Below are positions 31,531 to 31,620 of a stretch of DNA of 64,000 bases, in pieces (within the stretch, counting starts at the first letter, position 1; each line of letters opens with the position of its first letter). A program made the translations under genes and the position numbers. Under the pieces are notes generated by a model. The model was given only the letters and a program-made list of their open reading frames with translations. It did not search any database and was not told the DNA's origin. Location of the stretch: NCBI RefSeq assembly GCF_018127925.1, contig NZ_CP072348.1, positions 1,838,501 through 1,902,500 of the forward strand, written 5' to 3'. Source of the stretch: Prevotella melaninogenica. GTDB taxonomy: Bacteria; Bacteroidota; Bacteroidia; Bacteroidales; Bacteroidaceae.

Positions 31531-31620
31531 AAAAAGGCACTCGGTATCCCTCCGAGTGCCACCACTAAATCCAAAGTATGAGTGTAATCCGGTATCGAAG
31601 AACAATTCATTACTCTGAAC
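31531..31620 (-). ncRNA. rteR: RteR small RNA
   Basis: A minus-strand -7 box TAACTTTG (31634-31627) is followed about 90 bases later by a strong terminator: GGCACTCGG (31560-31552) / CCGAGTGCC (31544-31536) with a 7-base loop and a T run. The predicted RNA is about 89 bases, immediately downstream of exc. This matches the size and place known for RteR of CTnDOT, a trans-acting sRNA that lowers tra operon expression. A single-stranded-looking segment (31578-31562) just before the terminator hairpin reads UACUUUGGAUUUAGUGG and is complementary to leaders of several ICE genes. Confidence 0.8.

What the first reader, a model, noticed from the sequence alone, without database searches (positions are those of the whole stretch)
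31531..31620. RteR sRNA carries a 17-nt segment complementary to leaders of several ICE genes
The predicted RteR RNA contains UACUUUGGAUUUAGUGG just before its terminator hairpin. Leaders reading CC(A/G)CUAAA(A)UCCAAAGUA occur 0-2 bases before the start codons of traI (2096-2113), mobA (8898-8914) and the DUF1896 gene (31476-31492). Partial copies lie upstream of exc (33750-33775), traE (5770-5786) and the HTH gene at 36627. Pairing would cover ribosome access at tra, mob and exc genes at once. RteR is known to lower tra expression; as far as I know its base-pairing target has not been defined. A rival reading is that the motif is simply a shared ICE ribosome-binding leader whose inverted copy in rteR is descent, not function.
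Basis: partly seen in the sequence, partly recalled or inferred. Interest (0 to 1): 0.9.

Follow-up and report, generated by a model that had tools for sequence, protein, structure and literature searches.

The report
RteR small RNA's conserved leader targets
A small RNA carried by a gut-bacterial conjugative element looks built to stick to the starts of the messages for that element's own transfer, mobilisation and excision genes, and in several related elements both sides of the match have changed together, which suggests how one RNA could switch off DNA transfer.

Summary
An RteR-like RNA lies on the minus strand (31620-31531) directly 3' of topB/exc. Its segment UACUUUGGAUUUAGUGG is complementary to leaders of traI, mobA, DUF1896, an excisionase-like HTH gene, traE and exc, plus traN just left of the window. 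Scanning both strands of the 64 kb, 8 sites reached -17 kcal/mol: RteR's antisense, RteR's own 5' arm, and those six gene starts. Seven of 25 gene starts reach -17; shuffled segments average 0.07. RteR-like RNAs at the same place in other elements have different segments, with matching leaders: UUAAGUGG with CCACUUAAUCC, UUUUUGUGG with CCACAAAAAUU. Reassigning segments among 14 types never equalled the true pairing in 200,000 permutations, though single exchanges are clean for only some types. Two loci that seem to have lost the segment have weak D-type leaders. Most sites cover ribosome entry, so translational shut-off is likely; repression is inferred, not shown. The RNA scores below Rfam's rteR threshold: a distant homologue. 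No paper I could search named the targets, but the primary RteR papers were not held.

The parts
31627..31634 (-). Bacteroidota-type -7 promoter box TAACTTTG of the RteR-like gene
   Evidence: A pattern for TAnnTT(T/C)G-like boxes found one before the RNA in 14 of 15 elements queried (L249 not listed there because its RNA is longer, but the box is visible). Kept in L043-L047 although upstream sequence differs. The consensus is recalled knowledge.
31531..31620 (-). RteR-like sRNA (approximate ends; 5' end inferred from the promoter box)
   Evidence: Fold z-score -4.3; Rfam RF04181 rteR 40.5 bits, E 4.5e-05, below gathering 72; directly 3' of topB/exc
31611..31620 (-). 5' arm, resembles the target leader and pairs with the segment inside RteR
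   Evidence: Fold; similar stem in 14 of 15 folds, the window included. The Rfam model has such a stem, but cmscan's alignment of the window to it shows 5 non-standard pairs.
31562..31578 (-). 17-nt antisense segment (seed) UACUUUGGAUUUAGUGG
   Evidence: 19-mers of RteR taken every 3 nt: strongest mean pairing with the seven leaders starts at nt 43, i.e. here
31531..31560 (-). intrinsic terminator hairpin GGCACTCGGAGGGATACCGAGTGCC plus T run
   Evidence: Sequence; similar hairpin in relatives
31472..31493 (-). RteR site covering the start of the DUF1896 gene (31475-31023)
   Evidence: -25.2 kcal/mol; DUF1896 by Pfam
33760..33775 (-). RteR site in the exc (topoisomerase III) leader, about 34 nt before ATG; a second partial copy overlaps at 33763-33746
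   Evidence: -20.2 kcal/mol; exact 17-mer before exc in 9 of 80 relatives, the window's variant CCACTGAATCCAAAATA in 49 (counted)
2095..2114 (-). RteR site before traI (DUF4141), one bulged A
   Evidence: -21.6 kcal/mol
5769..5787 (-). RteR site about 68 nt before traE
   Evidence: -21.1 kcal/mol; a traE site is also present in types B1, C1, D1, D2 and E1
8897..8915 (+). RteR site before mobA (Pfam MobC_2)
   Evidence: -25.0 kcal/mol; Pfam
36609..36630 (+). RteR site covering the start of an excisionase-like HTH_17 gene (36627-36932)
   Evidence: -25.6 kcal/mol; Pfam HTH_17, TIGR01764 excise below its cut-off

Best explanation
The element makes a roughly 90-nt RteR-like RNA from its own promoter just 3' of topB/exc. 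The RNA is a long hairpin followed by a terminator. The 3' strand of the hairpin is an antisense segment; the 5' strand resembles the target leader and may hold that segment until a real leader displaces it. The segment pairs 15-19 nt with a leader box that the element repeats before traI, traN, mobA, DUF1896 and an excisionase-like gene (covering ribosome entry or the AUG), and further upstream in the traE and exc leaders. Pairing would block ribosome loading; in the long tra operon, untranslated mRNA would then lose distal transcription by polarity. One RNA could thus hold down the mating apparatus, relaxosome and excision functions together. Shown here by sequence: the gene's features, the sites, their specificity and their covariation. 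Inferred: expression in this strain, the latch, translational block, polarity, physiological timing. The stated confidence is for a pairing regulon that lowers these genes; translational block in particular I put at about 0.6.
For: Specificity: 8 sites at or below -17 kcal/mol in 64 kb on both strands, two of them RteR itself and six gene starts; 7 of 25 element gene starts at or below -17, shuffled segments mean 0.069, maximum 3 in 1,000 shuffles. Conservation: segment in 79 of 80 named exc loci, with terminator in 78; traE, traI, traN and mobA boxes all four in 24 of 25 tra/mob loci, L114 lacking only the mobA region. Covariation: permutation 0 of 200,000; cognate term negative in 81 of 91 type pairs; reciprocal exchanges A/J (7 of 7 A sites and 3 of 3 J sites prefer their own segment), D/E (3 of 3 and 2 of 2) and A/B2 (7 of 7 and 2 of 2). 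Loss: D-type sites weak in two loci without the segment; best-seed leaders at or below -17 in 45 of 65 with RteR, 8 of 58 without. Later-fetched annotated elements: 3 of 3 non-self sites at gene starts in L287, the three strongest non-self sites in L290. CTnDOT RteR is described as a trans-encoded RNA that promotes discoordinate tra expression (PMC7366714, passage).
Against: No expression or binding data. Full-length cofolding left DUF1896 at -3.8 and gave shuffled controls overlapping values. Exchanges by calculation are mixed for A/C1 (5 of 7 and 4 of 7 own, one of the 4 an artefact), A/I (I: 1 of 3 own) and A/K1 (K1: 1 of 2 own). Ten of 91 type pairs do not favour the cognate, F/G most. The cognate segment ranks first of 14 in only 3 types. 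One element (L128, with the visible end of a partly masked RteR in L200, UUUUUGUGG as in type E) has D-type leaders that prefer the D segment. L121 has E-type traE and traN leaders, but my terminator scan found no RteR in the 40 kb upstream held. In D1, which has RteR, the traN leader is not a site (-11.0); in the segment-less L129 the traN leader still pairs with some other type's segment (-20.5). Targets are not constant: no exc site in B, D, E1; no traI or mobA site in D, E1; the DUF4099 gene clearly only in D. traE sites lie 46-106 nt upstream of the start.
Confidence: 0.83

Rival explanations
1. The leader box is a shared ribosome-entry leader of the element, and the inverted copy in RteR is left over from an inverted duplication without function.
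For: RteR's 5' arm does resemble a leader, and RteR folds as leader plus anti-leader, as an inverted duplication would. Some leaders do not follow their own segment (L128; parts of C, I, K1).
Against: Segments and leaders of several genes changed together in J, D/E and B2; D-type leaders are weak where the segment is missing; elements without RteR mostly lack the box (50 of 58 windows above -17).
Confidence: 0.06
2. The box is a DNA-binding site for a regulator; RteR merely holds one copy.
For: A 17-bp box repeated before several genes would also look like an operator set.
Against: In the close relatives read, the sites before genes have the same sense relative to the gene and are inverted in RteR; they sit 0-3 nt from the AUG or inside operons; in the DUF1896 leader one extra base of varying identity is tolerated in the middle. 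No binding protein was looked for.
Confidence: 0.04
3. Same pairing, but the output is premature transcription termination or mRNA cleavage inside the operon rather than a block of ribosome loading (this shares the pairing with the best explanation, so the odds overlap).
For: traE sites lie 46-106 nt and the window's exc site about 34 nt upstream of the start; CTnDOT RteR is described as causing discoordinate tra expression (PMC7366714, passage); sites in the tra operon lie about 3.7 and 4.0 kb apart before traE, traI and traN.
Against: Most sites cover about -20 to the AUG, the usual place for a translation block; no conserved terminator after the traE site was shown or systematically sought.
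Confidence: 0.3
4. The RteR region is a leader or N-terminal extension of DUF1896 acting only in cis.
For: In the window the frame is open from RteR into DUF1896, and the segment faces the DUF1896 leader about 70 nt away.
Against: Frame in phase and open in only 39 of 79 close relatives examined; in L287 and L290 the gene next to RteR is not DUF1896; other sites are on other genes and strands.
Confidence: 0.02

Closest known systems
RteR of CTnDOT (Rfam RF04181)
   Same: Position beside exc, hairpin plus terminator, size; D/E-type relatives pass the Rfam threshold (L266 93.5, L268 79.6 bits).
   Different: Window RNA scores 40.5 against gathering 72 and has a different segment; target leaders are assigned here by complementarity and covariation.
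Trans-acting antisense sRNAs with one seed and several mRNA targets (GcvB, RyhB type; recalled)
   Same: One segment pairs near many start codons.
   Different: The targets found lie on the same mobile element, share one near-identical box, and the RNA carries a look-alike of that box. No Hfq-like chaperone was looked for.
FinP/traJ of F-like plasmids (named in PMC9299015, passage)
   Same: Antisense RNA keeps conjugation down.
   Different: FinP represses one gene, traJ; here one RNA faces about seven leaders in several operons.
ColE1 RNAI/RNAII-type antisense codes (recalled)
   Same: Family-specific antisense/target pairs that co-diverge.
   Different: No replication control; same-segment elements coexist in one genome (L048 and L057; L062 and L083), so strict incompatibility is not indicated.

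Membership tests
RteR sRNA (Rfam RF04181) | Covariance-model score at or above the curated gathering score (72 bits) | tested here: not met
   Window 40.5 bits, E 4.5e-05; of 11 relatives searched, L266 and L268 pass. Hence called a distant homologue, not filed as a member.
RteR sRNA (Rfam RF04181) | Gene directly 3' of topB/exc with own promoter box and intrinsic terminator | tested here: met
RteR sRNA (Rfam RF04181) | 5' arm pairing with the segment before the terminator hairpin | tested here: met
   By folding; in cmscan's own alignment to the model 5 pairs are non-standard
RteR sRNA (Rfam RF04181) | Lowers tra expression and transfer | not testable with these tools
   Known for CTnDOT from the literature only
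Trans-acting antisense sRNA | Complementarity to start regions of separately encoded mRNAs beyond chance | tested here: met
Trans-acting antisense sRNA | Compensatory change between RNA and targets | tested here: met
   clean for A/J, D/E, A/B2, mixed for A/C1, A/I, A/K1, contrary for L128
Trans-acting antisense sRNA | Pairing of the full-length, folded RNA | tested here: inconclusive
   Six targets rank first among 25 windows but shuffled controls overlap and DUF1896 fails
Trans-acting antisense sRNA | Expression and regulation in the cell | not testable with these tools
   No transcriptome or reporter data

The most novel reading that the evidence does not exclude
CTnDOT-type elements carry co-evolving private pairing codes: each family of elements has one RteR segment and a matching box repeated before its transfer, mobilisation and excision genes, with RteR carrying a look-alike of that box as a self-latch. 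The code could let a resident element also silence an incoming one of the same code, while elements with other codes escape.
Probability: 0.25. Interest if true: 0.88.

Novelty: new variant of a known kind. Interest (0 to 1): 0.78.

Why it matters
How RteR restrains transfer of CTnDOT-type elements, common carriers of resistance genes in gut Bacteroidota (recalled), has no defined target in any paper I could search. This gives base-level target sites in several operons, a co-varying code across relatives, and simple reporter tests. If confirmed it would be an sRNA regulon in Bacteroidota supported by covariation, and a case of one RNA coordinating a whole conjugative element.

Tried and rejected
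A conserved peptide or N-terminal extension from the RteR region: open and in frame in only 39 of 79 close relatives. Host targets: of the two chromosomal matches with 2 mismatches, neither precedes an ATG-started frame of 50 or more codons. Full-length cofolding as proof: inconclusive. Exact-segment search in 395 phylum genomes: only 3 matches, too even a sample; the order sample gave 5 of 218; the family sample was useful, 51 of 301. A predicted B-type segment (the plain complement of the B leaders) was found only as leaders, not as an RNA; the B RNA, found by the terminator scan and lying 3' of topB, matches the core and in part the distal end. Rfam at gathering threshold on the whole window: 0 matches. 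One search was swamped by an unrelated word (5,625 papers, 40 listed). One search timed out with no output and was replaced by other scripts.

Flaws in my own tables: the segments were cut at uneven ends and were recut; the label '17 seeds' should read 16 by my count of the recut list; 'C2' joins loci of two genomes (L263 and L126) and was not used in the 14-type test; N1 and N10 appear to be the same element; the C1 DUF1896 window (-17.7) hits RteR's own 5' arm. B1 comes from a genome with two B-type elements and partly duplicated tra genes. The division into 14 types is mine; some are close to each other. Leaders are related by descent, so the Fisher value overstates independence. Of 24 elements tabulated, 14 were used for the permutation.

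Full report
WHAT IS THERE. The window holds part of a CTnDOT-type integrative conjugative element: tra genes on the minus strand below 8235, mob genes 8917-12620 (+), a large gene 25217-31033 (-) with weak methylase and helicase matches, DUF1896 31023-31475 (-), topoisomerase III (exc) 31638-33725 (-), a DUF4099/DUF3945 gene 33786-35357 (-, called P523 in scripts), excisionase-like genes near 36 kb and a tyrosine recombinase 37384-38697 (-) (tra and mob letters are recalled CTnDOT usage, in line with the annotation of relatives). Between exc and DUF1896 lies a gene for a small RNA on the minus strand: a TAACTTTG promoter box (31634-31627), a transcript of about 90 nt (31620-31531) and a strong terminator hairpin. 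Rfam's rteR model matches it at 40.5 bits, E 4.5e-05, below the gathering score of 72. The model's consensus is of the type called D/E below; of 11 relatives searched, L266 and L268 pass the threshold. I therefore call the window RNA a distant RteR homologue.

THE OBSERVATION. Seven matches with up to three mismatches stand against 0.36 expected. In the whole genome all four copies with 0 or 1 mismatch lie in this element. An energy scan of both strands of the whole window with the 19-nt segment gives eight sites at or below -17 kcal/mol: RteR's own antisense, RteR's own 5' arm, and six gene starts (HTH gene -25.6, DUF1896 -25.2, mobA -25.0, traI -21.6, traE -21.1, exc -20.2). The overlapping stretch to the left adds traN (-22.0) and one site not at a gene start (-17.6). 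Of 25 gene starts of the element, 7 reach -17; 1,000 shuffled segments reach this at 0.069 starts on average, 3 at most. Among 19-mers taken every 3 nt along RteR, mean pairing with the seven leaders is strongest for the one beginning at nt 43.

CLOSE RELATIVES. Eighty named exc loci were fetched, the best 80 of 311 relatives. The segment is present in 79 of 80 (L070 ends at exc) and with its terminator in 78 (L072 has another sequence in place of the terminator). The DUF1896 leader usually reads CCRCTAAA, then nothing or A, C or T, then TCCAAAGTA and ATG, so that the middle base varies while both arms are kept; L061, L079, L081 and L082-L084 depart from this in one arm. The exc leader has the exact CCACTAAATCCAAAGTA in 9 of 80 and CCACTGAATCCAAAATA in 49 (counted). 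In 24 of the 25 tra/mob loci L090-L114 the box, with up to 3 errors, stands before traE, traI, traN and mobA, in gene sense; L114 does not reach mobA; L099 and L101 have one further loose match each.

DIVERGENT RELATIVES AND COVARIATION. RteR was sought by a terminator scan and then by place, directly 3' of topB/exc, not by complementarity to leaders; the first C, D and E copies had surfaced in a search with leader-derived patterns. Of 40 more distant topB loci (L247-L286, about 49-82% identity), 24 carry such an RNA by my reading (L258 with an insertion before the terminator); 16 do not. Segments differ. J (L259): GUGGAUUAAGUGG with leaders CCACUUGAUCCAC (exc), CCACUUAAUCCA (DUF1896) and CCACUUAAUCCA (HTH gene). 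D (L176, L177 and others): AUAAUUGAAAUUUUAGUGG with CCRCUAAAAUUYCAAUUAUU before the DUF4099 gene, a traE site, and a traN site in D2 but not D1. E (L175): one base different, UUUUUGUGG, with CCACAAAAAUUCAAUUAU (traE) and CCAUAAAAAUUUCAAUC (traN). E2 (L268): GGAUUUUUGUGG with CCACAAAAAUCC (exc). B2 (L251): CUUUACAUGGAUUUAGUGG with CCACUAAAUCCAUUGUAAAG at the DUF1896 start. K1 (L270): seven U with seven A in the exc leader. K2 (L274): CUGUUG with CAACAG in the exc leader. Six exchanges were computed. Clean: A/J (7 of 7 and 3 of 3 sites prefer their own segment), D/E (3 of 3 and 2 of 2), A/B2 (7 of 7 and 2 of 2). Mixed: A/K1 (7 of 7, but 1 of 2 in K1), A/I (7 of 7, but 1 of 3 in I), A/C1 (5 of 7 and 4 of 7, one of the 4 an artefact). 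Across 14 types (of 24 elements tabulated), mean cognate energy over eight pre-named starts was -16.09 against -13.22, sd 0.53, for reassigned segments, 0 of 200,000 permutations as low; with all starts -13.38 against -11.67, again 0. The cognate interaction term is negative in 81 of 91 type pairs; the ten positive are A1/G, A1/H, B1/F, B1/H, C1/H, F/G, G/H, G/I, H/I and K1/K2. The cognate segment is rank 1 of 14 in only 3 types, because some segments pair strongly with most leaders; the permutation allows for that.

LOSS, EXCEPTIONS, LATER ELEMENTS. In a relative of D that keeps a terminator but has no segment (L186 with L129), the D segment pairs with traE, traN and DUF4099 leaders at -6.9, -12.4 and -8.7, against -18.7, -22.0 and -17.9 in D2; L264, in the same state, has -8.7 at DUF4099. 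But L129's traN leader still pairs at -20.5 with some other type's segment, and D1 has lost the traN site with RteR present. L128's leaders prefer the D segment although the visible end of the partly masked RteR near it reads as in E, and L121 has E-type traE and traN leaders while the scan found no RteR in the 40 kb upstream that I hold. Over all, best-seed leaders at or below -17 number 45 of 65 in elements with RteR and 8 of 58 without (rows are not independent). Two annotated records fetched afterwards, related to D and E, gave: L287 (Parabacteroides distasonis), five sites at or below -14.5, two of them RteR itself and three before the DUF4099 gene, traN and DUF4134/traE; L290 (Bacteroides ovatus), seven sites at or below -14, one RteR itself, the next three at mobC, DUF4134/traE and traN, three weaker ones not at annotated starts. 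L288 gave RteR itself twice, a DUF4099-like start and one doubtful site; in L289 no RteR-like promoter was found, so it was not tested.

HOW IT PROBABLY WORKS. RteR folds as a hairpin in which the 5' arm, itself like a leader, pairs with the segment. Such a stem appeared in 14 of 15 folds (window and 14 relatives), started at or near GCCAC, which may lie just upstream of the real 5' end; H was cut at the wrong place. The simplest reading is a latch opened by invasion of a leader. Most sites cover the stretch from about -20 to the AUG, so pairing should block ribosome loading; traE sites and the window's exc site lie further upstream and may act through operon polarity or termination. [quoted passage not shown] Cofolding of the complete RNA put six of the seven targets first among 25 windows, but shuffled controls overlapped and DUF1896 failed, its window containing part of RteR itself; I count this as inconclusive.

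LITERATURE. Searches of the held library (useless, only partly listed) listed no paper that names RteR's base-pairing targets. Passages were read in PMC10994844 (reference list only), PMC7366714, PMC9299015, PMC5729914, PMC12632263 and PMC5418344. Waters and Salyers 2012, Jeters 2009 and Waters and Salyers 2013 are not held; what they say about targets is unknown to me.

VERDICT. Known parts, new connection: a known kind of RNA with a well-supported target set across a mobile element and a co-evolving, family-specific code. The strict incompatibility reading is weakened by genomes with two same-segment elements (L048/L057, L062/L083), though some genomes hold different segments side by side (G408 with D and E; G700 with J and an exc identical to the window's).

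Noticed in passing
L114 11602-11583 (about 1.9 kb left of the window): A further site before traN; with traE and traI the tra operon carries sites about 3.7 and 4.0 kb apart.
   Followed up: yes
window 31622-31023 (-): The RteR region is open and in frame with DUF1896 here, as in 39 of 79 close relatives, but not in the rest; a trap for gene finders.
   Followed up: yes
window 31627-31607 (-): RteR's 5' arm resembles a target leader including AUG (-17.1 kcal/mol with the segment); RteR may have arisen by inverted duplication of a leader.
   Followed up: partly
window 35732-36157 (-) and 36627-36932 (+): Two excisionase-family-like proteins (TIGR01764 below cut-off); only the second has an RteR site.
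   Followed up: no
window 38.7-41.5 kb: An end of the element may lie here, between the recombinase and a glycine C-acetyltransferase gene (41494) that looks chromosomal.
   Followed up: no
L290 4913-6718 and L259 12657-12796: Reverse transcriptase/maturase gene beside traI in L290, and a group II intron domain (Rfam RF02012) in L259.
   Followed up: no
L258: An insertion between the RteR segment and its terminator, a natural variant.
   Followed up: no
L128 with L200; L121: Elements whose leaders do not match the RteR seen near them, or that have leaders but no RteR found nearby; possible recombinants.
   Followed up: partly
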